DNA of 64,000 nucleotides from Dendrolimus kikuchii. Taxonomy: Eukaryota > Arthropoda > Insecta > Lepidoptera > Lasiocampidae. The position numbers and the translations under genes were made by a program. The notes below the pieces were generated by a model. The model was not told where the DNA came from. It worked only from the letters and a program-made list of their open reading frames with translations, and made no database searches. Within the stretch, counting starts at the first letter, position 1. The number at the start of each line of letters is the position of its first letter. Below are positions 815-63,676 of this stretch, in pieces. Location of the stretch: positions 5,599,763 to 5,663,762 of the forward strand of contig CM034397.1 in assembly GCA_019925095.2 (NCBI GenBank). Reading direction: 5' to 3'.

Positions 815-1011
815 TTATTTTTTATCATGGAAATGCTTATTTCTTATCATGACAATGTCTCCGCCCTCCGTGTCAACCATTGCTCTGCATCCATGTTCGC
901 TGTGAGTCGAACACACCCACCTCGTTCTGAGTCCATACACTTTGTGAGCTCCGAAGGTATAGCCGTCAATACTAAGTAGACCTCTTCCTTGATCTGATTT
1001 CACAAAGAGCA
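815..1011 (-). CDS. mod(mdg4): FLYWCH exon F1 (alternative 3' exon)
   Basis: The acceptor reads TTTTTCAG with TG as the first two exon bases. The 65-residue tail starts VLFVKSDQGRG and has Y18, F20, W32, C34, C42, H60 and H62, all at consensus positions, then a short basic end (DKK). The Cys-Cys loop is STHSEHG and the segment after C42 is acidic (DTEGGD), unlike its neighbours. It is the leftmost exon seen, so it would be the most distal choice for a transcript running right to left. Whether more exons lie below position 1 cannot be judged. Confidence 0.88.
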
Positions 1012-1839
1012 CTGAAAAATTATTATTTATAAATAATTATATGAAATAAATATTTCATTTAAAACGTTCAATCAAGTAACTGTCTTTGAATTGACTATAC
1101 ACTTTTAGAGACTGAGAAAATCCGCATGACAATATTATACTTAAGATATATATATTTAAGAGCATAGATGTGAGAATGAGGGAATTACAGGAAGGGCAAT
1201 GGAAATAAGTCGAAGGCAAAGTTATTTTTCATTTTATATTTTTGATTTCTTTTACTATTTTTATTGAATACACCGGTTTGTATATAAATTTAAGATAAAA
1301 GGAAGATAAGATATATCCTGATATTATATTGTACGTTAATGTATTATAAAAAAATGTAAATAAGTCAAATTAAGAAAATTTAAACGAGAGACAATAATAA
1401 TAAACATTTATTTCGCACAAATAACTATTATTATCCATATTATGAATATATCTTGCTTTAGATCACGGGCCATAAGAATGGGTTGGACTTTTGCATAGAG
1501 CAGTGCGACCACGTAGTAACCTTTTGGAAAATTTAATCTAGATGTGACTAAGATTAATTTAGATTGACTAGGAAATATTCCTGTATACACTATAGAAATT
1601 CATCCGTAATACTATAACGGGAGAAAAAAGGACTATCCACACATTAGTCGGCACAGTTCGGCAAATACATGCCAAAAGAGCTTTACACTTATGACAAAAG
1701 GATATCAGTGATATTGTTCTCATTGGCTTGATACCGTACATCTTATATTTGCCGGATCCGTGCCGACTAGTATGGGACTTTCCTTATACTCTTAAATATT
1801 TGTTACTTACAATTTACTTAAGAGCTAATTTTGACATTG
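1012..1839. other. Spacer between F1 and F2, with a possible decayed exon
   Basis: Mostly AT-rich sequence. At 1408-1590 an open minus-strand frame follows TATAG and ATACAG acceptors and begins GIFPSQSKLIL, faintly like the start of a FLYWCH exon, but lacks the W-x-C, second Cys and H-x-H. It is not annotated as an exon; see findings. Confidence 0.3.
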
Positions 1840-2087
1840 TTAGTAAGTATTCCTGTTATTTTGTACTTTATTTTTTTTACTCCGATATGTTGATTGTTTG
1901 CTATGGCAATGTACATTTTTCATCTTAACTATTTCATTTTCAACCGTGAAAACGACTGCAGTACACCCTCTGCTATTGTGAGTTGAGCAGACCCATCTGG
2001 TTTTTACTCCGTCAACACTCTTAATACAAAATTTATAACCATCAACGTTGATGAGATCTTTGCCTCGCTGCGATTTCTCATAGAACA
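1840..2087 (-). CDS. mod(mdg4): FLYWCH exon F2 with a basic C-terminal extension
   Basis: Acceptor CTTTTACAG, first bases TG. The start VFYEKSQRGKDL is close to F3 and F4. W32, C34, C42, H60 and H62 are all present (H-C-H ending). Unlike most copies, it continues for 20 residues past the last His in a Lys/Arg/Asn-rich tail (SKQSTYRSKK and onward) before TAA, making it the longest exon at 248 nt. The tail might be a nuclear-localising or DNA-contacting addition, or simply loss of the ancestral stop. Confidence 0.9.
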
Positions 2088-3343
2088 CTGTAAAAGTAGA
2101 AATGATGAATATAATATAATAATGATTAAGCAAGAAGCTTCGAAAAAAATGTGCACCTAATTAAATGTAGCATTATCGTAACATAAGATTTTAGCAAGTA
2201 TAAAATTAGAAGCAGTAAGTATATCAATAAATAATAATTCAGACTCCCTTATTCATAATCATATTATTAAACCGCGACATCGTTCACGCTGGACTTGAAA
2301 TTCCCGCGGGATTCACGGGACACAAAGCATCGCAGCATTTAAAAAAAGAATGTAAGCTATCGTTTTACTGGAAACTGTGTCGGAGTAAGCTAATTTTTAT
2401 GGATCCGAACAACTTCAAACCGCTCCCGAGATAAAAAATATTACGCATTTATTATTTTCTATCGATCAGTAAAAAAATCACATTGGAATTCGATTATTTT
2501 TAATCTGGCCATTTTAAATTATTCCCAGAAAATTCCCGCAATAAAAAGTAGCGCAGAGTTTAAGTCTAAGAATTAGCTATCGATCAGCGAAAACCAAATC
2601 GATCGAGTTTTTACATGAATCCCGAACAAATAGACAATATATTTTTTTTAAATTGCATCGTATTCTCCATCGTTTGTATAGATTATTCCAGTTCTATTTT
2701 TAATTGCTTTTATGTACAGACATGGCATCTTTAGAATTTTTAAATATTATAAACAGGGATACAGGAACTTTTGTTATATTAATTGTTTAGATAACACATT
2801 CTACAATAAATAGAATAATGGCCTTACAATGCGTGTATAGATTTTATCGCTTTGTCTTGCGTCATTATAACACATCGTTATTCTCTACGTTTTTTCATTG
2901 TATATTAGGGTTAAATAAAATATCATATTTTGACCTAGTCCTCATTAGTTCATTTTTAAATTTTAAAGTCATTTATCAATATGAAACCCCATGAGGTTCG
3001 TCAAGACAGAAACAATTGGTATAAAAATTTGACTCTGTTTATTCATAAAATCATAAACAAATATGTGACTGATTTGAAAACGGTGAATAACACACACATA
3101 CATACATACACACAAGCACGCACGCACACTCACACACGCATGCACGCAAAAACACACCCGGATACGCTGAATCTCATTGGTATATTGTTTTATTATATAG
3201 CTGTAGGGCATCGATATTGCAGCAGTTTTTAATAATCATAATGATAGTAGTATCACTATTGTAACTATTCTTTATGCTTTTAAACATCTGAAATAATGTT
3301 AGCGACTGTGGCTAAATGCAACTTAATTATAGTGTTAAATTAT
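2088..3343. other. Spacer upstream of F2
   Basis: No gene recognised. AT-rich, apart from a CA/CACA tract near 3091-3150. Confidence 0.4.
3091..3150. repeat. CA-rich simple repeat
   Basis: Imperfect run of ACAC/ATAC/GCAC units, which produces low-complexity open frames on both strands. Confidence 0.85.
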
Positions 3344-3610
3344 CCGTGCAGGAACGGAGAAACAATATAATTTCCTGCGGCTGGGTGGCCTGTCGTAAGA
3401 GGCGACAAAACATCTCATAGCTAGGTGGTACGGTGTTTTCCCATATGGATGAGTACCACCTTGAGTTGTGTTCCGGCATTAGTGATCAGGTTCCAATCAC
3501 CCTTTAGAGAGCGACAGCAAATTGGTAGCACCTTTGGTGTTACAAAATGTCCACAGGCAATGTTAACTGCTTTCCATCAGGTGGGCCGTCTGCCTGTCTG
3601 CTGAACTCAT
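3344..3610 (+). repeat. Family A repeat (LINE 3'-end-like), copy 1
   Basis: Starts at CCGTGCAGGAACGGAGAAA and runs through the family landmarks: CTGTCGTAAGAGGCGACA, GGTTCCAATC and GGGCCGTCTGCCTGTCTGCTGA. At least ten related copies lie in both orientations in this window, the fuller ones ending in CAATAAAAA. The 3' portion matches the end of the LINE coding fragment at 61960-62345, so this is probably a truncated LINE tail or a SINE using it. Confidence 0.8.
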
Positions 3611-3784
3611 CACTGACACAGTCTTTAATACCAGGGGATTACAAAAAGTTTGTTGAAAATAGAAGTACACAGAAAAATATGACCCTTTAAATTCCAGACA
3701 AAAACTTCTGTGAGAAATGACTAAAGTTTTGATTGCCAAGTTCCTGAATAGATGTAACACAGACCTCGTTTTTACTTTAAACAG

Positions 3785-3984
3785 TTATAATATTTTATTA
3801 TGGCAATGTCTATTCCAAATGTCGACTATTCTGCCATCCATAGTCTGCACAACTGCTTTACACTGTTTGCGACTGTGGGTAGAACACCGCCATCTTATTT
3901 TTTGACCCGATCTCTTTTTAAAACAAAACGTGTACCCGCCAACACACAGAAGATCTTTGCCTCGCTTAGATTTCTTGTAGAATA
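3785..3984 (-). CDS. mod(mdg4): FLYWCH exon F3
   Basis: Acceptor GGTTACAG, first bases TA. Starts VFYKKSKRGKDLLCVGG and keeps Y18, F20, W32, C34, C42, H60 and H62. The loop residue before C42 is Gln instead of the usual Gly (SRKQC). Ends H-C-H then NKIL and TAA. Closest by eye to F5 (K-K-S-K, LLCV, H-C-H), pointing to local duplication. Confidence 0.9.
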
Positions 3985-4855
3985 CTGTAACCAAATTTCA
4001 TACGTGTATGTTAGTGAATACTATATAGAATAAGAATAATTCATGCAAAACTAAAACAAAGTATACACAAAATATTATTAAAAGTTTATGACAGTACGCG
4101 TGAATTATATGTTATCAGCGTCTAAATATAGCTATGGAAGAAGAATAATACTAAAAATCCCAATTGCCCAGAAAAACTTAACGCCAAAAATATTTTAAAT
4201 GCTACTTAATACTAGATGGCGTTAGTCATTTTTTTGCATACTGACATTTTATTATTTAGATGTATTTATTTAATGAGACATTGAACATAAATTGTTATAT
4301 CCATTTATTATTTAGAGCGAACCAGTTAAAGTTTAAATTCTTAAAAAGTTTATTTTCAATATTTGGGTGATTTGAGTTAAAAAATCTCGTAAATAATAAA
4401 ACTTTACAAAAAAACAATATAGGGACGAATGCTATTACAATAGTGTCAGAATAATTAATCACTTGCGTCATAAAGGCTGATTTACATTCCACCTACTAAC
4501 TTGGAGAGCGCACTAACATTAAATCAATTTACACGATGCTAGTATGAAGTCAGTCCTACTGGCTTTTTTTCGAATTTGAAGTAGCTGAATCAATGTAAAT
4601 CACCTTCTACCTAAAGGAAACCATTATACATCTGTTACAATTGGAATAATGTTATTAATTATATCACGCAGACTGATGTAGCTAAGAGTTTAAAGCACCA
4701 CAGTCACTAACACTAACGCAGGTGGATGGAGCACTTACGGTGCCATGATGACGGCACTAGTCGACTATTCTGATACTATTGTAATTGCAGATTCAGGGTG
4801 GTAAGTTTAATATATTGAGACTTAACAAGCAATATGTTTATTAACTCTTAAATAT
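3985..4855. other. Spacer between F3 and F4
   Basis: AT-rich; no gene or recognisable repeat seen. Confidence 0.35.
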
Positions 4856-5046
4856 TTACTCATGGAGATGTGAATTGTTAATCTTAACTATTTGATCTTC
4901 AACAGTGTGAACGATTGCTTTACAGCGTTTGTAATGATGAGTAGAGCATCTCCATCTTGTTTTTATCCCATATTTTTCGTGAATGCTAAATGTATATCCA
5001 TCAATACTAAGGAGGACCCTGCCTCTTTGCGATTTCACATAAAATA
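4856..5046 (-). CDS. mod(mdg4): FLYWCH exon F4
   Basis: Acceptor TTTTTCAG, first bases TA. Begins VFYVKSQRGRVLLSIDG, with W32, C34, C42 (loop STHHYKR), H60 and H62, then a single Glu before TAA. A tRNA-derived SINE (5087-5370) is inserted about 40 nt upstream of the acceptor, so the branch-point/polypyrimidine region is squeezed between exon and SINE. Confidence 0.9.
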
Positions 5047-5086
5047 CTGAAAAAGTTATATTAATAAATATTATATTATAACAACT

Positions 5087-5370
5087 GAGTCGTGGTAGCG
5101 TAATGGCTAGTGCAAGCGTTCCAAACTCAGAGGGTACGGGTTCGATCCTGGCCGGAACGCATGCACCACTTAAGTCAGTTTTCTGATCTAATGTGCATAT
5201 TATTACAATTACAGAAGGAAAACATCGTGATGCAACCTGCACATCGAGATAACCGATGTGTCAAACCTGCCAAGCCGCCTTGGACAAGCGTAGCGGGTAT
5301 ACGTCCGTTCCCCCTATAATGGGAGGCCCGAGCCCAGCAGTGGAACATTTAGCAATTACATTATTATTAT
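5087..5370 (+). repeat. tRNA-derived SINE, copy 1
   Basis: The head has pol III promoter boxes: a box A-like TAGCGTAATGGCTAG at about 5095-5109 and box B GGTTCGATCC at 5139-5148. The body contains CATCGAGATAACCGATGTG and AAGCCGCCTTGGACAAGCG, and the tail is an ATT-type repeat. A minus-strand copy lies at 18405-18655 and a 3' fragment at 43168-43280. Confidence 0.85.
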
Positions 5371-5803
5371 AAAACATTAGCAATTTAAATTTGCCGCGTC
5401 ATATTCATATTATATGCAGTCGCTGCCCTCCATAGTTTATTTTGTCAACATACAGTGGTAGCACCAACGTAAGCCCTAAGTAAATTAATTAAGAAGGGAG
5501 ATAAACAAATATTAACGCTAACAGGACAGAAAGAGAGAAAGTATAACGTTTTGCAGCGCATTCCATTAGTAGCTCACAACGCCCAAAATGCTCCGTTATC
5601 CGCTCCACAAGGCGACCGTGGTTTTTCCTGTTCCACTTGCTTGCCGGTGTTACAATCATAGACCCAAGTGTAATAGTTATTCGACCCACCTCTTAACATG
5701 GGTCGTTGTGAGCATTGTGTGATCGAAAATTATGACGTCATTAGTGACGTTTTCGCCACGACCACAACGACCGCAGTCGAATTGAAAGGTCATAGATTAA
5801 ATA
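5371..5803. other. Spacer upstream of F4
   Basis: No gene recognised; no repeat identified. Confidence 0.3.
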
Positions 5804-6115
5804 TTTTTTTATTGCAGGAGTTCAGCAGACAGGCAGACGGCCCACTTGATGGAAAGCGGTTAACATTGCCTGTGGACATTTTGTAACACCAAAGATGCTA
5901 CCAATTTGCTGTCGCTCTCTAAAGGGAGATTGGAACCTGATCACTAATACCGGAACACAACTCAAGGTTGTTATGGCGACATACTTTAGACCAGGGGTGG
6001 TAGCCATCCAGTCGGGCAAATGCCCTACCACCTGGCTGTGGGTTGTTTTGTTGCATCTTAAGACAGGCCGCCCGGCCGCAAGGAATTGTATTCTTTCTCC
6101 GTTACTGCACGGATA
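5804..6115 (-). repeat. Family A repeat, copy 2 (near full length)
   Basis: Reverse orientation: starts with TTTATTGCAG on the plus strand and ends near CTGCACGGATA. Includes all landmarks, with a few changes in the CTGTC-GTAAG region. Confidence 0.85.
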
Positions 6116-6945
6116 GTAAAACTAAACAAGAACGCAATAAATATCTTCCTTCAAACAGATGACGTTTTGATCAGTAAATCCATATTTTTTTATAAAGTCT
6201 GCAGTAAAATTGCAAAATAAGACTAAATGATCCATTTCCCACAGTTTTTCGGATAATTTTAATATATTCTTGATACATTAACATAATTTAATAATGTTTA
6301 CAATTAACTTTACATTATGGTACGTGCCAAATCAATCCGCACATAAATCCTTTGATGAAAGTAGTCAAAAACATAAAAAACGAAATTCTATAAATAAATT
6401 ATACCGTAGATATTTATGTACTTAACAAAATATAATTCCTAATAATTAGAAGTTTTGTCATTCTTGATCTAATCCTGATATCTGACAGATGAAACGAATT
6501 GAATCAATTTGGTTGAAAGATACAGATTTTAAAGGACACGACGGTCTTCAATGAACATGAATGATTCAAGTTTATGTTTGATGAATTAACATCGAACTTG
6601 AAAGACCAAGACCGCCTTTAGGAGGAAAAAATATCGGAGTTTGTGTTAATTGGATTGGCGCACAGTATTTTACAATAAAATCTAAAATAAATAACATTAT
6701 CATTTAATTATTTATAATTGTGATTATTGTTAGTTAATTTTATGCATTGTAAGATAGCCATGGGACATGTTTTCTTGAAATAAAAAGATCTACATATAAA
6801 TAAACGCTATTATCTTGATATCATCTTACTTTTGTAAAATTATAATATTAAATAATAATAATTATTATTATTTATGAGTGGCATTGTTGTTTATGTATTA
6901 TACTGGTTACTTGTCTGTTCTTTACACATCTTATTATTCATTTTT
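6116..6945. other. Spacer between F4 and F5 side repeats
   Basis: AT-rich. Around 6485-6605 there is a degenerate piece of a small repeat (AATTTGGTTGAAAGAT) also seen near 39990, 41825, 43010 and 56850. Nothing else recognised. Confidence 0.35.
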
Positions 6946-7145
6946 TTATAATCTATATACTTTCTCATGGCAATGCTCATTTTTTATCTTAACTATTACA
7001 TTGTCGATGGTGTGGACAGTCGCTCTACATTGTCCGTGGGTTGAGCATATCCACCTTATTTTAAATTTAGTTTGTCTTTGTAACCGAAATGTAAATCCAT
7101 CAACACAGAGAAGATTTTTGCCTTGTTTCGATTTCTTGAAGAACA
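6946..7145 (-). CDS. mod(mdg4): FLYWCH exon F5 (shortened Cys loop)
   Basis: Acceptor TGTTACAG, first bases TG. Starts VFFKKSKQGKNLLCVDG; Tyr18 is replaced by Phe. The loop is STHGQ, so spacing is C34-x5-C40 rather than x7, and the His pair moves to H58/H60. Ends in a basic/hydrophobic EKVYRL. The same two-residue shortening occurs in F6 and F7, the next exons in line. Confidence 0.9.
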
Positions 7146-7221
7146 CTGTAACATATTTTGAATATGTGAAACACTGATTATATAAAAACAAATTGTAGAA
7201 AGTATACAAAATTACACTGCT

Positions 7222-7562
7222 CCACAAAAAAAGTGGTCTTTACTTTTGACCAGACTCATTTAATCTTATGTATTTCGATGCGCTGAATCCGAATTCGAAC
7301 CCATTTGGAAAAATCCAAGTATATTGCTAAAAAATCCCTAAAAATTGCTACAAAATTACGAAAATTTGCAAATGATAATGATAAAAATAATAATTTTTTT
7401 GTACAACATTTAAAAAAATAGATTCAGCGAATCGGATTAAAAAAAAATATACCTTATAGTTAATAACTGTTTTTTATCATAACTGCAATTCTTAGGAATT
7501 TTCCGGAGGATTTTTTTGCAATTCACTTAAAAGTAAAAAAGTACATATCACTTTTTTGTGGG
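7222..7562. mobile_element. Inverted-repeat element (MITE-like)
   Basis: The left end CCACAAAAAAAGTGGTC and the right end CACTTTTTTGTGG are inverted copies, and similarity continues inward for about 30 bp. An internal pair (CGCTGAATC / GATTCAGCG) is also inverted. No coding capacity. It lies about 75 bp upstream of the F5 acceptor. Confidence 0.6.
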
Positions 7563-7842
7563 CCGGTATTATTAGACGAATAATGTGAAAAAGATGTTTA
7601 TTCGGAAGATTATGTGCCAAATTTTATAGCTCCTTATAATGACAGAAAGTTTTACAATCTCTGATTTAAAATTAAAAATATCTATTGTAGCCATCTGTTG
7701 TTACTAAACTATATATACAGTTAAATAGGTACTTTCGCGACATTCCTCCGATATCGTCCTATCTGTCACAATTCATTATAATAATATGATGATCTACAGC
7801 TACATATTTAAACAAGTTTCTTCTCTTAATAATAACAAGATA

Positions 7843-8412
7843 CATACATACATACATACATACATAACTTCACGCCAGTTCCCTTGCGGGGTAGGCACGA
7901 ACAACAGAGCGCCATCTAGGCTTATTCTTACACACCTCACTTGCTTCTTTGACATTCATAACTCTTGTCATGCACGCTCGTCTGTTCTTAAGGCTCCTGA
8001 CATCACCTTCTGCTAGTACAAGATCAATTTGATCATGGATGGTGTGTCGTGGCCTTCCACGACTTCTGCATCCATCCACTTTTGCATTGTATATCTGTTT
8101 AGTCATTCTTTCATCATGCATTCTTTCCACATGCCCGAACCACCGGAGCATTCCTTTCCTTACCTTCACCCCGACACTCTCTTTCAGACCAACTCTCTTT
8201 CTTACTTCGGTATTACGAACGTGGTCCGCGAGCGTCACTCCGCAGATTTTGCGCAGTGCTCGCATCTCGACCGCGTTTACTCTACTTTCATGCTCTCTCT
8301 TCTATACCCAACTCTCGCTTCCATACGTGAGCGTAGGTACCAGCCCCGCGTTGTGTACGGCGAGCTGGGCCTTCTGGCTGAGGTTCTTAGCGCCTAGAAG
8401 TTAGCGCCTAAC
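7843..8412 (-). pseudogene. RTE-type LINE 3' end, copy 1
   Basis: The minus strand encodes the C-terminal part of an RTE-clade reverse transcriptase: the stretch MRALRKICGVTLADH, then LRWFGHVERM, GRPRHTIHDQ and the terminal AYPARELA. It ends in a CATA tetranucleotide run, typical of RTE tails. Further minus-strand coding upstream (AKNLSQKAQLA) is joined out of frame. 5' truncated and broken. Confidence 0.85.
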
Positions 8413-8418
8413 AAGATA

Positions 8419-8942
8419 CAACTAGCTTTTTTCCGCGGCTTAGCTCGCGTTGATGTTGTCCCACGGGAAACATACATTTTTCGGAATAAAAAGTAGCCCA
8501 TGTGTTGTTATTCCAGATTATAATCTATCTGTGCTAAATATCATTCAGATCCGTTCAGTCATTTTGGACTGTTTGAGTAACAAACATGCATCCAAACATT
8601 CACATTTAATTATTATTTATACATACATAATTGCTTGGACTGCTGATTGATTGATTTGATTGCTGAAATCCACAGCCCAAACTACTGGCGCTAGGATCGT
8701 GAAAATTCGCATGTGGATTCTTTCTATACTGTAGGTACGCACTAAGAAAGGATTTTTGAAAATTCACCCACTAAGGGGGTGGAAATGGGGATGAAAGTTT
8801 GTATGAAAATTCGTCATTTTCAAAGCATTAAGCACGAAATTTTATATACCTGCTTCTGGCTCGTAATACTCGAAGTAAACACGACCCCTAAGGGGGTAAA
8901 AAATTGTAATCTACGCGGTCGAAGCCACGAGCAACAGCTAGT
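8419..8942 (+). mobile_element. Family D non-autonomous element, possibly Helitron-related
   Basis: Begins near CTAGCTTTTTTCCGCGGCTT and ends near GAGCAACAGCTAGT. A CTAGT end preceded by a short palindrome is Helitron-like. The '(T)GCCCGCGACTTCGTCCGCG' motif family recurs at 13221, 23205, 48705 and 56270. No coding. Confidence 0.5.
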
Positions 8943-9371
8943 TATGATTGAGTAAGAATACATATGTAGCTGATAGGAAGATGCAGGACTTTCCAGCGCA
9001 TTTTGTAATAATTAATGTAAATTCAACATATCGATATTTATTTTATGTATATTGGGAAAGAAATCTAAACAAAAAATGGTGTATAAAATCCTCATGTTGA
9101 TATTTAAAAATTGAGCATAAACATTTTTAACATTTATTAAATTATGGTATGGAATGAAATAGTAATAAGTTTTATACACACACAAAATATAGCATATATT
9201 ATTTTAAAATCCCTTATTATAATTATAATCAAAAATACGCATAATATACATGTGTATGACTTCATAATCTTATCATTTGCAAACTTGTAGATATTATGTA
9301 CATATATGTAAGTCTATCACTTCTTATGGACTTATAGAGCGTGATAAAACGTTTAAATGTACGAGTATTAT
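8943..9371. other. Spacer downstream of F6
   Basis: AT-rich; nothing recognised. Confidence 0.3.
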
Positions 9372-9571
9372 TTAGAACCTTAAAATCTTTTCATGACAAT
9401 GGTCATTCCTGACCATGACTATAACACCGTCCACGGAGTGGACTGCTGCTTTGCACCGTTTATGAGAAGAACATGCCCATCTTGTTTTCCTTCCGTACTT
9501 CTGATGGCACCGGAATGAATATCCATCAATACAAAGAAGATATTTGCCTCGTGGTGTTTTCAAGTATGTCA
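9372..9571 (-). CDS. mod(mdg4): FLYWCH exon F6 (shortened Cys loop)
   Basis: Acceptor TTTTCAG, first bases TG. Starts VTYLKTPRGKYLLCIDG; Thr2 and Tyr3 replace the usual aromatic pair, and Pro7 is unusual. W32, C34, then loop SSHKR and C40 (x5). H58/H60 as H-C-H, with tail EKILRF. Shares the LLC-DG core, H-C-H ending and EK tail with F5. Confidence 0.9.
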
Positions 9572-10572: not shown

Positions 10573-10754
10573 CTAATGATTGTGGTCATTTTTAATTCTA
10601 ACAATGTTTTGGTCAATTGTCCAAATGGTTGCTTTGCATCTGTTATGGGTGGAACATCTCCAACGCGATTTAAAACCCGTAGTTAAATGGTGGCAAAACG
10701 TATATTTTCCTACTTTTATCATATGCTTTCCAGAGCGAGATAGCACGAAACGGC
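10573..10754 (-). CDS. mod(mdg4): FLYWCH exon F7 (shortest; shortened Cys loop)
   Basis: Acceptor TTTTCAG, first bases GC (split codon Gly if joined to G). Reads GRFVLSRSGKHMIKVGKY and continues to W32, C34, loop STHNR, C40, H58, H60 and TAG with no in-frame stop. The opening belongs to the FVLSR type of F8-F21, yet the x5 Cys loop is that of F5 and F6, so it bridges the two groups. At 182 nt it is the smallest exon. Confidence 0.9.
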
Positions 10755-10904
10755 CTGAAAAGAATTAAAAATTCAAATTCAAAAGTTTTTATTCAAAATA
10801 AATTCCACTGGAGAATACTTTTTGAAGGTCATACATACTTATAAAATTTAATTTTCCTTAAACGTATTATGACGTACGCTATAGTAATTTTGTGATATCT
10901 TCTT

Positions 10905-11125
10905 CGTCAATCAATGCCTACTGCTGAGCGTAGCCCTCCTCAAGTCTACGACTACACTATATCCCGGTGTCCCACCTTCCTTATCCAGCTGCTGCCGGCG
11001 ACCTTATGCAAGTCGTCGATCCACCGGGCTAGAGGGCGTCCTCCTTCACTCAGTGACACGTTTGCTCCATCGACCGTCGGTCCTGCGACAGACGTGACCA
11101 AGCCTACTGCCAGTTCAACTTGCTA
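10905..11125 (-). pseudogene. LINE C-terminal fragment (RTE-like)
   Basis: The minus strand reads GRPLARWIDDLHKVAG followed by a W and an R-rich end broken by stops. GRP-x-RW-x-DD near the C-terminus is common in insect RTE-like and related non-LTR elements. Short and degenerate; the clade is uncertain. Confidence 0.6.
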
Positions 11126-11126
11126 A

Positions 11127-11966
11127 TTTTGCGAGCTAAGTTGATTATCTTAGTTCTCTTACTGATATCCCAATGTCTGATTCTATCGATAAGAAACGCC
11201 TAACCAGACCAGTCCCCCCACCAGTGTCCATAACACGGCACCGTATGTCGTAACTGGTAAGACGCACTGCTCGACGAGTTTCGTCTTCACGTATTGCGGA
11301 ACGGTCGACGAGTAGCTTTTAGACTTACAAGCCAATGGATGGCGCTCTGCAATAATTGAGGTCGCAAACGATTCCCGAAACTACATAGAATATATACAAA
11401 TTTACAATAATAATAAACGGGCCTAGGCCTGCGAGGAACAATAATAACCTCGCTGGAAGATCTTCCTTTGAGACGGAGGAGTATACCATCTTGCTCCTCT
11501 ACCCTATATGGGGCACGCCCTTCATACATACCTAATAATACGTTTCTTGAATTGGAATTCACGCCAGAAATATTTACAAATATTTACTTTTAAACTCGTG
11601 ACGTGAGAAAAGTAGTACATAAAGTTTTTAGAATAGTGTGGTAAGGTTATTAGTTTAGTCAGAATAATAATTAGGTTATGAATTATGATGGTGATGTGGC
11701 AATCTCGGGTTAGACGTAAATTATTAATTATTGTTTTATTCTTTCTTCATATTTATGGCTTGGCAGCTAGATTCTAAAGTCAGAGTCATAGTTTGGACAG
11801 TATAATATACGTTTATTTCCAGTATATAAAAGTACCCTGTGATACATATATTATACAGTAGATACACCATGTGGATAAATGTGGCAAACAGTGAGTACGT
11901 ACAATTCGCCACAACGGCGGACAAAGGAAGTAAGTTCATAAAGCTTTGTTGGATTAATCTTATATA
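11127..11966. other. Spacer upstream of F7
   Basis: No gene recognised. At 11290-11560 there is a somewhat more GC-rich stretch of unknown origin. The motif GGCTTGGCAGCTAG at about 11757 recurs near 44612, suggesting an undefined repeat. Confidence 0.35.
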
Positions 11967-11968
11967 TG

Positions 11969-12018: not shown

Positions 12019-12022
<4 letters not shown>

Positions 12023-53220: not shown

Positions 53221-54184
53221 TTTATCTATAATTTTTTATTTAGTTCTAGTTTTTAATTTTAGGTTTATTTTTTATACTATAGTTTAGTTTTAGTATTTAA
53301 TTGTATTTTTCTTTTAATATTCGTTAATTATTAAATTAATCTACAAGATTGTTACAAAATATTGCAATAAAATTTTAGTTGTAACATAATTTATAATTAT
53401 TACTATTTTAAATACAACCTATATTATTCCATATTCTTTCTCTTTTACCTACCGCTTTCTTATTATTTTTTTCGGTTCCGCTAATCGTGCCGATTACGCT
53501 AATTTCCCAATTAGTATATAATACGTTATTATACGCAAATATTTTGTAAACCTATTTAAGAAAAAAATTAATAAAAATCTACAATGCCATCCATATGATT
53601 ATGGATGGCATTGTACAGATGCGTAATCTGGCAAAATACTTTTGTAACCCAATTTTCCCTCAAGGATAATGTTATAGTTATTGACCGTTTCATGCAGATG
53701 TAGCGATGGATATATGCGTTATTTGCAGTGCGATATGGTTATTAATTATTGATGACGTTAAATATTGACAGATGATGTATGTATAATGTATGTATGTATG
53801 TGTATATATATACTGTGTTTCTACATTTAGTTGAAACAATAGCAGGTACTTGGTAAAATATTGTAACTTATTTTTCTCAAAGGATTTACCGATTTTATTA
53901 CACTTGGTAATGCAGCGGTAATAGTTTCATTAGTTAGCGGTTTTAATTTTAAAACTATAAAATATAGTGAAAATTACGCAAAGGACACCTGGAGTTGGTT
54001 TTGATAAAAACTAAAAACGATACCATAACATTTTTGAAAAATCGATTATCATATTTGCGAATCGAAGTTATTGATACCGAAAAAATAAAACAACTTGTGT
54101 TATTTATTATATCAAACTATAATTGTACCTTACAAAGAGCATTAAAGTTAATTAAACAAATTCCTATATCCTAATATAATGTGC
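53221..54184. other. Spacer with a perfect hairpin
   Basis: AT-rich; apart from the hairpin at 53581-53614 and TATG-type simple repeat near 53775-53812, nothing recognised. Confidence 0.35.
53581..53614. repeat. Perfect 15-bp hairpin
   Basis: ACAATGCCATCCATA and TATGGATGGCATTGT flank a 4-nt loop (TGAT). Confidence 0.85.
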
Positions 54185-54372
54185 TTAATGATTATGATCG
54201 TTTTTGAAATTTATAATTTCATTGTTGAAGGTATGTACTACAGCTCTGCACCCTCTGCCACCATGACTTGAGCAAGTCCACGTCGTTTTGACATTAGATT
54301 TCCTTTTGAAGCAGAATTTATAACCATCAACAATAAGCATTGGCTTGCCACGCTCCGAAAGTTGAATTACTC
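54185..54372 (-). CDS. mod(mdg4): FLYWCH exon F26
   Basis: Acceptor AATTTCAG, first bases GA. Reads GVIQLSERGKPMLIVDGY; W32, C34 (SSHGGRG), C42, H60 and H62, then TAA. The opening VIQLSERG departs from both major types, and RGKP ties it to F25. A long snap-back element begins 43 nt upstream of the acceptor. Confidence 0.9.
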
Positions 54373-54417
54373 CTGAAATTTAATTGTTTTTGTTTAATTC
54401 TTAGTATTATCTTACTA

Positions 54418-54578
54418 TATAAGTCGTGCGCAGAAGGTTTGCCGATGGTCGTCCCTCCCGCTTCCTAAGACTGGGTCCGGGGCTTGTCTAAGTAGTACTC
54501 AGATCTAGACGACCGCGGGGCGCGGTTGTGGGAGCGAGGAAGGGTAATCATCGACAAACGTTCTGCGCACGACTTATA
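54418..54578. mobile_element. Palindromic snap-back element
   Basis: TATAAGTCGTGCGCAGAAGG at the left pairs with CGTTCTGCGCACGACTTATA at the right, and complementarity continues inward (TTTGCCGATG / CATCGACAAA). GC-rich in an AT-rich context, about 161 bp, no coding. Confidence 0.7.
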
Positions 54579-54654
54579 ACCTACCTTCATTCGTCTTACT
54601 ACTGTATGTATAGTCTATTTCTAGTATTTAATTTTATTTATACTTAAATATATC

Positions 54655-54790
54655 TCACGCGCTTTTTTTGCTCAAAGATTCAAACGTTGCAATACAATGT
54701 AGCAACGCCTTCAGCCTTTTGGAAACGTTCCCGGTAAGTGACAGTGGTTGGGGATCAATATATTATCTTTAATAATTAATTATTACCTTT
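54655..54790 (+). repeat. LINE-tail-like repeat, copy 2
   Basis: CAGCCTTTTGGAAACGTTCC and GGTAAGTGACAGTGGTTGG; compare 53095. Confidence 0.65.
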
Positions 54791-54952
54791 TTTGTTTAGG
54801 TTTATTTTATTTTGTTCTAGTTTTTAATATAGTATAATTTGCAATTTATTTTTAAGTTTATATTGTATTTTTAAAATAACAATTCGATAAAGCTTGTTAA
54901 AAAACATCATTATTTAAAACATATTTTTTAAATTTAAATCAATTATAAATTA

Positions 54953-55261
54953 TTCGTGCAGGAACGGAGAAAGAATACAATTTCCCGCGGCCGGACGGCC
55001 TGTCGTAAGAAGCGACTTAACAATCCACAGCCAGCTGGTAGGGCACTTGCCCGACTGGATGGCTACCACCCCTGGTCTAAAGTATGTCGCCATAACAACC
55101 TTGAGTTGTGTTCCGGCATTAGTGACCAGGTTCCAGTCTCCCTTAAGAGAGCAGCAGCGCATTTGTAGCAACGTTGGTGTTGCAAATGTCCATAGGCGAT
55201 GGTAACCGCTTTCCATCAAGTGGGCCGTCTGCCTGTCTGCTGATCTCCTGCAATAAAAAAA
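54953..55261 (+). repeat. Family A repeat, copy 10 (full length)
   Basis: TTCGTGCAGGAACGGAGAAA to TCTCCTGCAATAAAAAAATT; the clearest copy. Confidence 0.88.
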
Positions 55262-55319
55262 TTGAAAGTAATTAACTTCTTTTTAATTATGTAAATTTCA
55301 TAAAATGCGTTGATAATTA

Positions 55320-55375
55320 TAACAGCCCATGAACGTCCCATTGCTGAGCTCCGGCCTCCCACTATTGAGTAAAAT
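55320..55375 (-). repeat. LINE/SINE 3'-end scrap
   Basis: AACGTCCCATTGCTGAGCTC and GGCCTCCCAC are the reverse of the GGGAGGCCC-GAGC-CAG ending of the SINE family. Confidence 0.55.
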
Positions 55376-55559
55376 TCATCGAATTCATCGAAATTTATCG
55401 TGATTATTGAGATACATGACCGAAACACAAGACATGAGACCGCGACACACCTACTACTGTTTTGTATGCGATTGTATGTAGAATATTTGAAGCATGCGAG
55501 CGAAGCGAAGCGAGACACAGGTGAACGACTGCGCCGGGAGACGCTCGACAACCGTCTTC

Positions 55560-55740
55560 ACGACAGCTATCGGCTATAGAACGACTGACAAGCTACATTT
55601 TAATAAGTTGCCGACGGCTAACGGCTCAGCCGTTAACTTGTCAGTTTCAGTTTTATTGAGCAGCCATTAACTAGTTGGCGAGGTAAAAAACAACTTGGCC
55701 GTGACTATTTCGTGAACAATCGATGTTTAACTGCTGGTTT
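55560..55740. mobile_element. Small element (family H), copy 2
   Basis: AACGGCTCAGCCGTTAACTT and CTAGTTGGCGAGG; compare 46170. Confidence 0.5.
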
Positions 55741-56269
55741 TTACAATATCTACATCTCTAGGCATATTTAGCGGGAGTGTCGTGTATCGCGCTCCCTGTC
55801 TCGCGTCTCCATCACTTATCTCAGTTTTTGAACTAAAAATTCTGTAACATCTTCACATATAATCATATTTATGTTTCATTTCATAGACGCCGTCTCAAAA
55901 CTCAAATGTATGTTTAATTGCAGTCTTACTTCGGTTTTAGGGTTAATGTAAAAAAAAGAAAATGAAATAATACAAATATTTTGTCTAATATTTTAAGTAA
56001 TACAGTTTATGAAGAATGAATATGTGGTTTAACAATTTTCACCTGTCGAAGGGCTATTTAATTTAAAAGATACTTTGTGAAAGAAATCCTTTTTTTAATT
56101 AGAATGTTTCAAATATACGAAAAACAAGTATAAAGAATCTGGTTTCCTATGGAATATTTTCTTATTGAAATATATAAAAATTTATTATGAAATATATAAT
56201 TTCATTCTCCTGTGAACAAATTTTCACAACGCAACTTAAGCCTTTACCGTTCGATAATTTAACAATTAG
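55741..56269. other. Spacer
   Basis: No gene recognised. Confidence 0.3.
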
Positions 56270-56415
56270 GTTTTTCCCGCGGCTTCCCTCGCGTTACTGT
56301 GATCCCACGGGAACCGTACATTTTTCCGGAATAATATACAAGACTATAATCTATCTCTGGGCCAAATTTCATCCAGATCCGTTATGTCATTCTGGCGTGA
56401 TTGAATAACAAACGG
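56270..56415 (+). repeat. Family D fragment
   Basis: TTTTTCCCGCGGCTTCCCTC and CATCCAGATCCGTT, as at 8419-8600. Confidence 0.65.
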
Positions 56416-57172
56416 CCATCCAAAATCGCATTTATAAAGCCGTGTACCTACTTACCTGCGAACCGCAACCGTAAGCGTTGCAGTTACGTAGTACTGTTGT
56501 AACCAAAAATCATAGTGAGTACGTGGCTCGCGAGCTCGAGGCGAGCGGCACGCGTTGGCTTGCGCCGAGCCAACAAAGCGAAAATCAATGTCGATGTACA
56601 AATTAGAGCTCGTTGCTGTATCCGTTCGGTTACAGTTACAAGGACATGTCTACATGGCATGTAAAACGTATATTGGGTACGATAAACTCAACGTAAAACA
56701 CTTCAAAAAGTTCCTTTCGTCCGTAGTATCGCTTGATTTAGTAGCCAAGTATACAACATTATTCTTAGTGTAAGCAATTCACTAAATACCTATATAAAAC
56801 TATATCCTTATATAACCTTAGAGTTTACCTTAAGCCGATATGAGACAGTTCATCTCGGGTTTTCAATTTTGATGAATCAACCAAAGTGATCAATATATGT
56901 ATAAACTTGAATCAATCAATGCCATTGAATATTGACGTGTCCTTTTAGTTCTGTCCTATTCATACAAATCGATCCAAATTGGTTGATCCATCTAATTTCA
57001 ACATTACTTATGGTAAGTAACAAAAGTAAAAGGCACTTACTAGTCATATTTGGCTACAGTTTTATTTATTGCGAAACAGGTAAGCGGACCCTGGGCGTCG
57101 GAGTGAACGCTCCAAACGCAAGCGGAATTTAGCGCTCGGATGATGATGATGAGGAAAAGAGGCAAAAGGCCA
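56416..57172. other. Spacer downstream of F27
   Basis: Includes a GGTTGA-family inverted-repeat element at about 56850-57005. No gene recognised. Confidence 0.35.
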
Positions 57173-57414
57173 CTATTTTTGCACAATAAAAACTTCTAAA
57201 GGTTTCGAGCGCGCTGTGCTTATGTGATTATGTCCATTATTAATTTTAATAATTTTGTTATCAACCAATCCAGTATGTACTACTGCACGACATCCTTTAC
57301 GATGGTGCGTAGAACAAACCCACACCGTTTTAAATTTCATTTTTCTTTGCGCATAAAATTTATAACCTTCGATTGCAAGAAGAGATTTCCCTTTTTGACT
57401 AAGAATCGACATGA
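57173..57414 (-). CDS. mod(mdg4): FLYWCH exon F27 with C-terminal extension
   Basis: Acceptor TTTTTCAG, first bases TC. Reads VMSILSQKGKSLLAIEGY, then YAQRKMKFKTVWVC with W32, C34 and C42. Two extra residues (HTGLVDNK) shift the pair to H62/H64. A 16-residue tail (ISTARSKPLEV and more) follows before TAA. The AQRK linker is shared with F28. Confidence 0.9.
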
Positions 57415-58905: not shown

Positions 58906-59099
58906 TTAATGTCTATGAATATGATTATTATTTATTTTAACAATACTATCTTCATAAGTCGTGATTCTTGCACGACATCCCTTAGTGCTGTGTGTAGAAC
59001 AAACCCATATAGTCTTAAGCTCCGTTTTTCTTTGAGCATAAAATGTATAACCGCCAACGGAGAGAAGACTTTTCCCTTTTTTACTGCGAACGAACGTTG
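58906..59099 (-). CDS. mod(mdg4): FLYWCH exon F28
   Basis: Acceptor TTGTTTTTAG (TAG), first bases CA. Reads ATFVRSKKGKSLLSVGGY, then YAQRKTELKTIWVC with W32 and C34 (STHSTKG), C42, H60 and H62, then Arg-His and TGA. Close to F29 and F30 in its TFVRS opening and to F27 in its linker. Confidence 0.92.
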
Positions 59100-59334
59100 C
59101 TAAAAACAATAAAATGATAAATAAATGTACTTTATATAACTTTGAATATTTCTGATATTGTACAACACTCATGACAAAACCTATGCTGAATGAAGGTTAT
59201 AAACTGGTATAATGATGTTCTATGACGTTATGTAAATCCGAACATACTTTTTAATGTTGACGTCTTATAATATGAAACGTTGGTTTGACAATGAATCTTG
59301 TTCTAGAAGACTATAATTGTTGCATTTTGAGTTG

Positions 59335-59515
59335 GAGCCAATTTTTCAATTATAAGATAAAAGTTATCAGTCGAATAAATTACAACCTGAGTAAATTCAA
59401 AATCAAAACAATTCAACTGTTTTATACATGCAACTGACACTTTTAATTTTCCATGTCATGTCATACTTTTTTCTATGATCTTCTATCTAGTAATTGAAAA
59501 ATCGGTCCTAAGTGG
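59335..59515. mobile_element. Small non-autonomous element (family F), copy 3 (fullest)
   Basis: GAGCCAATTTTTCAATTATA at the left and GTAATTGAAAAATCGGTCC at the right are inverted partners, about 180 bp. Confidence 0.6.
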
Positions 59516-59869
59516 AACATAAATGTTAAATAGTAATACTACTATTAAAGTTTTATAGTAATATGTCTTTTAATTTCTCTCTTTACTCAACTACATGAAT
59601 GTATAGTTCGGTTTAGTTGGTTAAAAAGTATACACGTAATAATATGATTTATATTCACAGTTAAGTAAATTACGCTTGTTTCATAAGTATAGGTACAACT
59701 GATAACACTGAAACCGATTTCAAACAACACACTATGTACATAATTGAACCGGTCTGTGATACAATTTTACAGTACAATTTTAGCTATATCTTGTATGGAA
59801 TGGAGAAAAAACATTAAGAAGAAAATATAGTAGGTAGTGAAAGGCAAACAAAAATGAAAGTTATAATAC
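59516..59869. other. Spacer
   Basis: No gene recognised. Confidence 0.3.
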
Positions 59870-60350
59870 ATACATACATACATAACTTCACGCCAGTTCC
59901 CTTGCGGGGTAGGTACGAACAACAGAGCGCCATTTAAGCTTATTCTTACGCACCTCACTTGCTTCTTCGACATTCATAACTCTTGTCATGCACGCTCGTC
60001 TATTCTTAAGGCTCCTGACATCACCTTCTGCTAGTACACGATCAATTTGATCATGGAAGATGTGTCTTGGCCTTCCACGACTTCTGCATCCATCCACTTT
60101 TGCATTGTATATCTGTTTAGTCATTCTTTCATCATGCATTCTTTCCACATGCCCGAACCACCGGAGCATTCCTTTCCTTACCTTCACCCCGACACTCTCT
60201 TTCAGACCAACTCTCTTTCTTACTTCGGTATTACGAACGCGGTCCGCGAGCGTCACTCCGCAGGTTTTTCGCAGTGCTCGCATCTCGACCGCGTTTACTC
60301 TACTTTCATGCTCTCTCTTCCATACCCAACTCTCGCTTCCATACAAAAGT
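59870..60350 (-). pseudogene. RTE-type LINE 3' end, copy 6 (longest coding piece)
   Basis: The minus strand is open for about 152 codons, from YGSESWVWKREHESRVNAV through LRWFGHVERM and GRPRHIFHDQ to RTYPARELA, then a TATG-type tail. No catalytic reverse transcriptase motif is included; 5' truncated. Confidence 0.88.
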
Positions 60351-60550
60351 TATAATAAAAATACAAAATTAATCTGACCCCAGCCACAGAGGAGACTGGT
60401 CGGAAAACTCAAATTTAGAATGGTGATATACGAGACAAAAAATTGCATAGGCAACAACTACCAAGTTACGAATATAAAAATTCGTATTAAAGCTTTTGCT
60501 AAGAAATAAATAAATGTTTTTTGTAACCTTACAATTTCATTTTATTCACA

Positions 60551-60861
60551 AAAAAATATTACATGAGATCAGAAGATAGGCAGACTGATGGAAAGTGATT
60601 ACCATCGCTTGTGAACATTTTTAATAATAAAGGTGCTGTCAATGTGCTGCCGCTATCTAATGGGAGTCTGCAACCTGGTCACTAATGCCGGAACACAAAG
60701 CTTATGGCTTTGTTATGTCGGCATACTCTACACCAGGGGTGGCAGTCAACCAGACGGGCAAATACACTACCTACCAACTGGCTGTGAGTTATTTTGTCGC
60801 CTCTTAGAACAGGTCGTCCGGCCGCAGGAAATTGTATTCTTTCTCCGATTCTACACGGATA
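60551..60861 (-). repeat. Family A repeat, copy 11 (diverged)
   Basis: Landmarks present but with many changes; from ATTACATGAGATCAG to CTACACGGATAG. Confidence 0.75.
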
Positions 60862-61161
60862 GAAATAACGATAATAAAGGAATAAAACTAAACCAGTTAT
60901 AACGAAGGAGATCCCAGACACCCAGACCATAATAAATAAAGGAGTGACAATCGTTCAGTAAAATACGTAACGTACTCGTAAATTCTGAATTTTCTACAAA
61001 GTCAAGAACAGACTGGTAGCGTCAAATATGATTGCAGAATGTGTTAAGAGTTACGTTTTTTACTTAGCGATTATCATACCTTAATATACTTCTTCCATGG
61101 TAATATGAATACACGAAAATGACTATTTCAAGTTTTCCAATAATATGGTAATTTTTTACAT

Positions 61162-61349
61162 TCAATGCGAGTGGTAGTTGTTACTTTTAATAATCTCTCC
61201 ATTGTGTATGATAATCTCTGCACGGCATTTTCTGCTGACCCGTTTAGAGCATAACCACGTAGTTTTAAGCTCTGTTTTCCTGTGGATATAGAATGTATAA
61301 CCACTAATGGAGAGAAGATCTGTTCCCATTCTGCTGCGCACGAAAGTTA
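61162..61349 (-). CDS. mod(mdg4): FLYWCH exon F29
   Basis: Acceptor TTTTCAG, first bases TA. Reads VTFVRSRMGTDLLSISGY, then YIHRKTELKTTWLC. W32, C34, C42, H60 and H62 are all in place, but the loop is SKRVSRK, lacking the Ser-Thr-His and the Gly seen almost everywhere else. Ends H-S-H and TGA. Confidence 0.9.
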
Positions 61350-61433
61350 CTGAAAAGCATATTAAAATAATATTAATAATACTCGTATAACGTTTAATTG
61401 AGTTTTTTCTTATTTCTACAGTACAACTGACAG

Positions 61434-61565
61434 GATGACGATGCATCTGATGGAAAATGATTACCGCCGCCCAGAAATATTTGCAACACCGAAGTTGTCA
61501 CTGGCTACCGGCTTCGAAATGGTGATTGAAACCTGGCTGCTAATGCCGAAAGCAACTCAAAGTTG
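61434..61565 (-). repeat. Family A-related fragment
   Basis: GATGGAAAATGATTACCGCC and CTGGCTGCTAATGCCG; diverged. Confidence 0.6.
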
Positions 61566-61959
61566 TTAAAAATAGAAAAACGAAAATGAATGTATTCTTT
61601 TTAAATTGGAATCTTACAGATTACTTGTTGAAATTAAAGATTCTACTAACGCTTCCAAAGCAATTTCAGCAGTTAAACGAGAAGGAAGATGCGGCGCAAA
61701 AAATCCCCAGCAATAAGTCTTTACTTCATTATTTTGTATATACATTCGTGGTATTTTTTAATGTATTCTGAACTAATCCTAAGTTTTTGAATAAATAGTT
61801 ATTGAAAGACTTTGGCAGCAATTGCATTATTCCCATTCGGTGCAGTCGTCTAGAAAATCTTTCGTCGTATAATATGCCTTCTTGCACAAACGTGGCTTCA
61901 CTACTTTTTAAACTTGTTTACTATATAATTGTTATGTCGGCATACTCTAGACTAGACAG

Positions 61960-62345
61960 GTAAGGGATTTCATCCACACTTCCTCAACACCTGGGAGTTA
62001 TCCACTGTACGTGGCGCTCGCACCTCTATGCCATACGTGAGCAACTATGGAACGAGCTCTCTCCCGCGGATTTCCCAGAGCGCTACAATATGAGGCACTT
62101 CAAAAAGGGCGTAAACAATTATTTAAAGTCTCAACGAGGTGGGCAACGCATCGGCTCCCTTAGTGTTACCGAAGTCCATGGGCGACGGTAGCCATTTTCC
62201 GTTTCACCCGTTTGCCAGTTTGCCTATAAGCGAACATAAAAAAGGCAAATTCCTTCACCAGGATGTCAGTTAATTTGCCACCTCTTAAGAAAGGTGGCTG
62301 CAGGAATTAGTATTATTTCTCCCTTCCTGCACGGATGAGTATTAT
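61960..62345 (+). pseudogene. LINE C-terminal coding fragment with family A-type 3' end
   Basis: The plus strand reads LWNELSPADFPERYNMRHF, KKGVNNYLKSQRG and IGSLSVTEVHGRR, then a stop: the usual C-terminal end of a Jockey/CR1-like reverse transcriptase. The nucleotides at its end match the 3' part of the family A repeats, which links them to this LINE group. Confidence 0.7.
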
Positions 62346-62979
62346 AACTTTGGATTATATTCACTCTCTTTTTAGTCTTTACAAACTTATACACAAAGGA
62401 TTCAACTATTACTTCACTTTTCACTACTTAACTACACAAAAGATTCACTAAATTATTACTGAAACAAAACACGATATTGTACTGTAGTAGAAGTCTTTTA
62501 ATTAAATCGTAGTGAAGGTAGATCAAAACTAAAGATTTATGAGATTACGTCGGCGAATGTTAGTTATAGAAACTTGTCGCGTCATCTAGTTTTATTTGAA
62601 AAGACGAATGAAAAAGAAATAGATATTTTGTATAAGATTAAGAATGGACTAATGGTGCAACCTACGTCGTAAGACTTACGAGGTACATTTTTTAGCGTAA
62701 CAAACGTCACCGTGATAACGTGAAAGAAGTTGCAATGGCACTACTGTTCATAAATAAATATTGTATATAATATGGGTATCCATTAACAGAACTACTAGAT
62801 AACCACTTCAGAAAAACAACATTCCATTACAATAATTGTAATAATTCTCTAAACAGTGTATTCTCTATCAACCTATCCTGGATACGCTTTACTGTGACTA
62901 AGTTTGATATTAATTATTATGAAAGTGAGAGTACATCCACTATTATTCGAATTTTGCTGACACAAACATACATAACTTG
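62346..62979. other. Spacer
   Basis: No gene recognised. Confidence 0.3.
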
Positions 62980-63080
62980 AATGAATGAATGAATAACTTT
63001 ATTGCACATATATTAAAGTACAATGGGCTGTCTTCTCGCCATAGGCGATCTCCTCAGACTACCCTATTATACAATTATTA
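62980..63080 (-). repeat. LINE 3'-tail fragment
   Basis: TGAATGAATGAATAACTTTA and GCCATAGGCGATCTCCTCAG; compare 26345. Confidence 0.7.
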
Positions 63081-63488
63081 TCGCCACCGACTTTATATTA
63101 TACATTTGTTGACTTCATAATTATTAAACGGAAGCTGAATTTTTATATACAAGACATATGACGATAAGTAAAATCGATATTTCAAAAATGTCACAAGGTC
63201 GCTCCACACTTACGCTAGAATCTCAAAATGCTAGAATTTCAGATGCATGGGTTTTGTAAAACCATTAATGGCTGGTTTCTATATCTTTGTGACTATATCA
63301 TTGCCTTACTATTGGTTAAAATATGCCATAAGCTCACATAAGTAACTGCAAAATTCAACCGAAGGTAAGATGACAAGGCAAGGGAATAAATAATGAGATA
63401 TAGGAACCAGTCATGAATGAATATAGGAACTGGCCATCAAATGCTTCGTGACAGACAAGAGCTATATTATTTTGGTCATAAAGTTGGT

Positions 63489-63676
63489 TCAATGGGAGTG
63501 ATTATTATTATGTTTAATTATATCTGCACCAAATGTTGCAATTCCTGCATTACAATGCCTGCTGCGTCGTTTACAGCATAGCCATGTAATTTTAAGCCCT
63601 GTTGTCCTGTGGGCATAATATGTATGACCCCCAATCGAGAGTAGGTTGTTTCCTCTTCTACTGCGTACGAAAGTTA
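63489..63676 (-). CDS. mod(mdg4): FLYWCH exon F30
   Basis: Acceptor ACTTTGTAG (TAG; pyrimidine-poor), first bases TA. Reads VTFVRSRRGNNLLSIGGH, with His for Tyr18 and Tyr for Phe20, then YAHRTTGLKITWLC, loop CKRRSRH with an extra Cys at 35, C42, H60, S61 and H62, then TGA. No internal stop. Sister of F29 by its opening and by the loss of STH in the loop. It is the exon nearest the presumed promoter side of the window. Confidence 0.88.

What the first reader, a model, noticed from the sequence alone, without database searches (positions are those of the whole stretch)
815..63676. Thirty same-strand FLYWCH terminal exons in one locus
Thirty intact single-finger exons in 63 kb, all minus strand, each with its own acceptor and stop. 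This equals or exceeds the isoform count I recall for Drosophila mod(mdg4), and both ends may continue. In Drosophila some alternative exons lie on the opposite strand; here none do. It amounts to a combinatorial DNA- or protein-binding repertoire behind one shared N-terminus.
Basis: partly seen in the sequence, partly recalled or inferred. Interest (0 to 1): 0.9.

Follow-up and report, generated by a model that had tools for sequence, protein, structure and literature searches.

The report
Moth mod(mdg4)-type alternative end-exon array
The stretch holds thirty intact, same-strand zinc-finger end-exons that look like part of a moth's mod(mdg4) gene, where one shared protein front is spliced to one of many tails; such large sets are already known in flies, mosquitoes, butterflies and moths.

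Summary
Thirty intact FLYWCH exons lie on the minus strand from 815 to 63676; none was found on the plus strand. All 30 match Pfam FLYWCH, keep W-C-C-H-H, have an in-phase YAG acceptor (25 of 30 at one distance) and end in a stop. In 435 of 435 pairs synonymous exceeds non-synonymous difference, so they are probably functional.

The genome is a moth of or near Dendrolimus: a D. kikuchii protein holds E18 whole and the first 46 residues of E23, letter for letter. The array is best read as acceptor exons of lepidopteran mod(mdg4) (often labelled "tramtrack beta"). In 120 of 120 listed BTB models from other Lepidoptera the tail starts with a residue whose codon begins with G, the phase-1 junction that all 30 exons need.

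It is a new member of a known kind: 31-41 isoforms in Drosophila, mosquitoes, monarch and diamondback moth, trans-splicing, and tandem exon duplication are published. No common BTB exon was found in the window, its strand is unknown, and no RNA was available. Trans-splicing is inferred.

The parts
815..9571 (-). FLYWCH terminal exons E01-E06: 815-1011, 1840-2087, 3785-3984, 4856-5046, 6946-7145, 9372-9571 (acceptor to stop). One clade; 1 to 20 residues after the last His
   Evidence: clade of 6 with SH-aLRT 86
10573..41616 (-). FLYWCH terminal exons E07-E21 (15 exons): 10573-10754, 12847-13034, 13906-14108, 17326-17510, 17909-18099, 20779-20966, 21561-21748, 24493-24680, 27737-27927, 31286-31473, 34657-34844, 35761-35948, 36809-36996, 39574-39761, 41429-41616. 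One clade; 14 of 15 stop directly after the last His
   Evidence: clade with SH-aLRT 88
43299..57414 (-). FLYWCH terminal exons E22-E27: 43299-43498, 45181-45368, 46949-47148, 51998-52221, 54185-54372, 57173-57414. More divergent; E22-E25 single branches in the tree, E26 and E27 a pair
58906..63676 (-). FLYWCH terminal exons E28-E30: 58906-59099, 61162-61349, 63489-63676 (E29/E30 a pair, E28 apart)
35761..35948 (-). E18: 61 of 61 residues identical to the end of Dendrolimus kikuchii protein K1T71_006546 (P0001)
45181..45368 (-). E23: its first 46 residues (of 61) identical to the start of the same D. kikuchii protein, whose order E23 then E18 is the minus-strand order of the window
20967..21097 (-). 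Upstream (intron-side) block of E12, alignable to that of E13

Best explanation
A lepidopteran (Dendrolimus-like) mod(mdg4) acceptor array. Each of the 30 units is a 3'-terminal exon: a phase-1 acceptor, one FLYWCH zinc finger and a stop. Shown here: the exons, their common phase, their intactness and purifying selection, and a BTB-FLYWCH family with a matching junction in other Lepidoptera. Inferred: a common BTB-bearing 5' transcript from outside the window, ending in '...GDAQ' plus one G, is joined to one of these exons at a time, mostly in trans to separately transcribed acceptor RNAs, as others showed in Drosophila. Each protein would multimerise through BTB, and its FLYWCH tail would help decide which chromatin partner or site it goes to. 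The set grew by local same-strand duplication. The confidence given is for the identity as mod(mdg4) acceptor exons; trans against cis is judged apart under the first rival.
For: 30 of 30 exons match PF04500 and keep W, C, C, A, H, H. 30 of 30 have a phase-1 YAG, 25 of 30 at one offset; a YAG occurs at 0.025 of positions in the window. With a donor G the junction residue would be V 14, A 12, G 3, E 1. In 120 of 120 listed lepidopteran BTB proteins (of 3272 matches) the residue after the common part is V, G, E, A or D, all and only the G-codon residues, and 120 of 120 tails hold FLYWCH by the window's profile, though 11 of 120 lack a precomputed Pfam FLYWCH; two of them (P0074, P0124) are named 'modifier of mdg4'. 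ps > pn in 435 of 435 exon pairs and no clear dead copy. The E18 model resembles the FLYWCH structure 2rpr best. Published: trans-spliced mod(mdg4) in Lepidoptera, with FLYWCH in most acceptor isoforms; Drosophila acceptors have independent promoters.
Against: No BTB exon found in the window (tblastn best E 2.7). No transcript data. Over 50 aa or more no window exon is above 60% identical to any of the 142 other proteins held, nor above 58.4% to a BTB-linked one; the 120 listed lean to butterflies because the query front came from one. 19 of 30 exons stop on the last His, against 8 of 110 listed BTB isoforms with a recognisable HxH. Only 9 trans-spliced isoforms are reported for Bombyx, which I recall as lying in the same superfamily as Lasiocampidae (one search gives Bombycoidea for Dendrolimus). 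Against the functional step: in Drosophila, Mod(mdg4)-67.2 lacking FLYWCH still fully restored the mutant phenotype and still bound its sites, with lower efficiency; a separate Su(Hw)-interacting region is called crucial, and most exons here have no room for one. No shared promoter-like motif upstream.
Confidence: 0.82

Rival explanations
1. Same gene and exons, but ordinary alternative cis-splicing and alternative polyadenylation of one very long pre-mRNA whose donor lies upstream on the same strand (beyond 64000). This overlaps the best explanation and differs only in cis against trans.
For: All 30 exons share one strand and one phase. 29 of 30 have AATAAA or ATTAAA within 600 nt after the stop (97%, against 85% from random starts), so each could end a transcript. 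PMC4667647 reports canonical cis-spliced homologues in a beetle, a bee, an ant and Daphnia, and same-strand donor and acceptors in Anopheles.
Against: Trans-splicing of this gene is reported in Bombyx, monarch and diamondback moth, with 33 of 40 monarch isoforms using the opposite strand; in Drosophila all isoforms are reported as trans-spliced. A single transcript would have to skip up to 29 acceptors.
Confidence: 0.17
2. Tandem FLYWCH genes or exons of another gene, not joined to the mod(mdg4) front (for example multi-FLYWCH proteins).
For: Gene models in several Lepidoptera string such exons together without BTB (P0001; P0002 to P0017, P0019, P0021, P0022, P0024 to P0026). For each of E07-E21 the nearest non-window domain in the tree lies in such a model, P0002.
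Against: Every exon has a stop after one finger and a phase-1 acceptor; several of those models cut domains short, as gene predictors do when they chain terminal exons. The BTB-linked Aricia protein P0030 carries a FLYWCH domain 58% identical to E10 and E20.
Confidence: 0.08
3. A dead or dying exon array kept intact by chance or gene conversion.
For: Dispersed repeats lie between the exons; E12/E13 show a dN/dS of 0.66.
Against: 30 of 30 open and complete, ps > pn in 435 of 435 pairs, six positions invariant, no dispersed repeat inside an exon in the 45 of 144 hits shown.
Confidence: 0.02

Closest known systems
mod(mdg4) of Danaus plexippus and Plutella xylostella (PMC4667647; passages and section 9 read)
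   Same: Lepidopteran BTB front with a large set of 3' acceptor exons, most with FLYWCH, tandem duplicates clustering in the tree; 40 and 41 isoforms.
   Different: Monarch: 24 acceptor genes over 550 kb, 33 of 40 isoforms from the strand opposite the donor. Here: 30 exons in 63 kb on one strand; donor unseen.
mod(mdg4) of Drosophila melanogaster
   Same: 31 isoforms, common BTB part, FLYWCH in most alternative 3' ends (26 of 31; 27 of 31 in PMC9723646).
   Different: 9 of 31 Drosophila isoforms join exons from opposite strands; tails here are minimal, 19 of 30 ending on the last His.
'Protein tramtrack, beta isoform' X-series of Lepidoptera (NCBI models, e.g. P0027, P0030)
   Same: BTB plus FLYWCH tail after a common '...GDAQ'; codon phase fits all 30 exons here.
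   Different: Listed tails are at most 58.4% identical to the window's exons over 50 aa or more and mostly extend past the last His (median 16 residues).
lola of Drosophila (named in PMC4667647 as the other well documented case; the rest recalled)
   Same: Shared BTB front, many alternative zinc-finger ends (recalled).
   Different: Ends carry other zinc-finger types (recalled), not FLYWCH.

Membership tests
FLYWCH zinc finger (PF04500) | Match to the Pfam profile, with C-C-H-H positions (their role as zinc ligands is recalled) | tested here: met
   30 of 30 members match at E <= 0.001; W, C, C, A, H, H invariant in 30 of 30
FLYWCH zinc finger (PF04500) | FLYWCH fold | tested here: met
mod(mdg4) alternative 3' exon set | Many alternative terminal exons, each with acceptor and stop, most with one FLYWCH | tested here: met
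   (sequence only; use as exons not shown)
mod(mdg4) alternative 3' exon set | Acceptor phase fits the common donor exon | tested here: met
   30 of 30 phase 1; donor phase inferred from 120 of 120 listed lepidopteran BTB protein models of other species
mod(mdg4) alternative 3' exon set | Common BTB-encoding 5' exons at the same locus | not testable with these tools
   None found in the window (tblastn best E 2.7); the window's own genome could not be searched
mod(mdg4) alternative 3' exon set | Transcripts joining BTB part and these exons (in trans) | not testable with these tools
mod(mdg4) alternative 3' exon set | Orthologous exons BTB-linked in another species | tested here: inconclusive
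   Best BTB-linked match 58% identical (P0030 with E10 and E20); only 120 of 3272 hits were listed

The most novel reading that the evidence does not exclude
The array is a fast-turning, lasiocampid-specific tail repertoire: two blocks (E01-E06 and E07-E21) arose by local duplication in this lineage, most E07-E21 tails shrank to the bare zinc finger and diversify at a few surface positions, perhaps in a race with transposons or other chromatin targets, while a separate core of mod(mdg4) tails conserved across Lepidoptera lies elsewhere in the locus.
Probability: 0.3. Interest if true: 0.55.

Novelty: new member of a known kind. Interest (0 to 1): 0.35.

Why it matters
It adds a dense, one-strand stretch of acceptor exons from a moth family (Lasiocampidae) that is not among the species named for mod(mdg4) in the passages of the 2015 survey that I read. 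It would make a good test bed for whether same-strand acceptors are still joined in trans, and for which FLYWCH surface positions set isoform specificity. It does not change what is known about the system.

Tried and rejected
Rejected: one multi-FLYWCH gene (each exon ends in a stop); chance ORFs (reversed-window control); pseudogenes; plus-strand FLYWCH exons. Non-FLYWCH alternative exons on either strand were not searched for.

Led nowhere: a k-mer search for a shared promoter or downstream motif found only splice-site words and A/T-rich words. Poly(A)-signal enrichment is slight: median first distance 145.5 nt against 211 from random starts. A sequence search of solved structures found nothing for E18. 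Scans of genome contigs and viral contigs with E18 found no relative. Rfam and tRNA scans of the window were empty. Pfam on 10 further ORFs found nothing.

Dropped rows: my first crude motif found one of the 30 and two plus-strand chance hits. The second motif returned 28 rows, of which 44204-44401 was not FLYWCH and was dropped, leaving 27 seeds; three exons (20779, 21561, 41429) were missed by it and recovered by the profile. For the tree, domains covering under 50 profile positions were left out before 194 were kept. The tree is a quick one, midpoint-rooted, with few columns per domain, and its non-window sample is what three word-based protein searches returned, so 'lineage-specific' is provisional.

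Papers: PMC4667647 (passages and section 9), PMC12692577 (abstract, outline, passages), PMC5666082, PMC9723646 and PMC5094011 (passages) were opened; all others were seen in search listings only. A search for FLYWCH + Lepidoptera + tandem listed 3 papers, one relevant. Only open-licence papers are in that library.

Full report
WHAT IS THERE. A profile search of 1142 six-frame ORFs of 30 aa or more finds 30 FLYWCH ORFs, all on the minus strand, with E of 2.5e-26 or better; 27 of them had seeded the profile, and the next best ORF on either strand is at E 0.23. The reversed window gives a best E of 0.48, and tblastn finds no clear remnant beyond the 30. Independently, 30 of 30 match Pfam PF04500.

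ARE THEY EXONS. In 30 of 30 there is a YAG that gives phase 1, 89-104 nt before the invariant Trp codon; in 25 of 30 the distance is exactly 92 nt and the others differ by multiples of three. In 15 of 30 the scanned stretch holds at least one other AG. YAG frequency in the window is 0.025 per position. The twelve bases before YAG hold 8.0 pyrimidines on average against 6.0 (SD 1.9) in the background. Six residues (W, C, C, A, H, H) are invariant in 30 of 30. In 435 of 435 pairs the synonymous difference per site exceeds the non-synonymous; in the closest pair, E15/E16 (77% identical), dN/dS is 0.18, but in E12/E13 (70%) it is 0.66. Many pairs are near saturation at synonymous sites (mean ps 0.78), so only the direction should be read.

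FLANKS. In six of the twelve exon pairs tested (those among E11-E13 and among E15-E17) the 50 nt upstream of the acceptor align with z 4.4 to 6.9, against a mean of 2.1 (SD 1.7) for random exon pairs; the other six pairs (z 0.4 to 3.5) do not clearly exceed it. Downstream of the stop only isolated 50-nt segments stand out. Five of the six exon-pair hits visible run 25 to 147 nt past the acceptor but end within 12 nt of the stop; the sixth (E08/E09) runs 28 nt past the E08 stop and only 16 nt past its acceptor. So the acceptor side may be constrained, in some exons.

WHICH ORGANISM. A search with E18 found one protein, K1T71_006546 of Dendrolimus kikuchii (Lasiocampidae, Lepidoptera). Its first 46 residues equal the start of E23 and its last 61 equal E18. 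The order E23 then E18 is that of the minus strand here, and the joining residue is consistent with the same E18 acceptor. So the window is from this species or a close relative; which one was not established.

WHICH GENE. A query of six joined exons found 28 proteins, all lepidopteran by their species names: 6 with BTB plus FLYWCH, named 'protein tramtrack, beta isoform' (P0018, P0020, P0023, P0027, P0028, P0029), and 22 with FLYWCH but no BTB. A query with the common BTB front gave 3272 proteins, of which the best 120 were listed. Two of the listed ones (P0074, P0124) are named 'modifier of mdg4'; I take both names as labels for one gene. After the common part ending in G-D-A-Q or a close variant, the first tail residue is V 43, G 28, E 21, A 15, D 13: 120 of 120 are residues with a G-first codon, so the donor leaves a single G in phase 1. 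120 of 120 tails contain FLYWCH by the window's profile; 11 of 120 have no precomputed Pfam FLYWCH. The 30 window exons need a phase-1 donor and with G would give V 14, A 12, G 3, E 1. From the junction to the Trp the listed isoforms have a median of 33 residues (118 of 120 with a W-x-C), the window exons 31 in 25 of 30. These are database gene models, so they show consistency rather than proof. No BTB sequence was found in the window.

HOW IT GREW. In a quick tree of 224 FLYWCH domains E07-E21 form one clade (SH-aLRT 88; it also holds the D. kikuchii copy of E18) and E01-E06 another (86); E29/E30 (84) and E26/E27 (77) pair, and E22, E23, E24, E25 and E28 sit apart. The two large clades are contiguous blocks, as expected from local duplication. 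19 of 30 exons end right after the last His, against 8 of 110 listed BTB isoforms with a recognisable HxH, 10 of 120 having none. Over 50 aa or more no window exon is above 60% identical to any of the 142 other proteins held. Some BTB isoform clusters stand for 77, 87 or 92 sequences (P0027, P0069, P0107), which suggests a widely conserved core of tails; by the same 60% ceiling none of these is close to a window exon.

KNOWN OR NEW. The 2015 survey (PMC4667647, passages and section 9 read) already reports lepidopteran FLYWCH acceptors, more isoforms than Drosophila in two Lepidoptera, and tandem duplication within lineages. The present array is a new, dense example.

Noticed in passing
3336-3610, 5803-6119, 14749-14989, 19776-20090, 30292-30588, 38486-38731, 47501-47825, 54946-55267, 60550-60869: At least nine copies of an approximately 300-bp dispersed repeat in both orientations (69-90% alike), between the exons (45 of 144 hits viewed).
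   Followed up: partly
7836-8326, 28715-29014, 44090-44379, 59855-60344: A second repeat family, up to about 480 bp and 94-97% alike, so probably recently active.
   Followed up: no
32386-33555 (+) and 50114-50629 (-): Reverse-transcriptase fragments (Pfam RVT_1; the second above the curated cut-off, the first below it), likely remains of retroelements.
   Followed up: no
20967-21097 and the matching stretch upstream of E13 (21749-21895): A block 100-150 nt upstream of the E12 and E13 acceptors is strongly alike (z 6.9) while the next 50 nt towards the acceptor are not (z -0.8); it could be a promoter or splicing element.
   Followed up: partly
61162-61349 and 63489-63676 (E29, E30): These two exons lack the otherwise invariant His three residues after the first Cys (R instead), though the C-C-H-H positions are intact.
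   Followed up: no
proteins P0018-P0143: Database names for this gene are inconsistent: mostly 'protein tramtrack, beta isoform', sometimes 'modifier of mdg4' or 'uncharacterized protein'.
   Followed up: no
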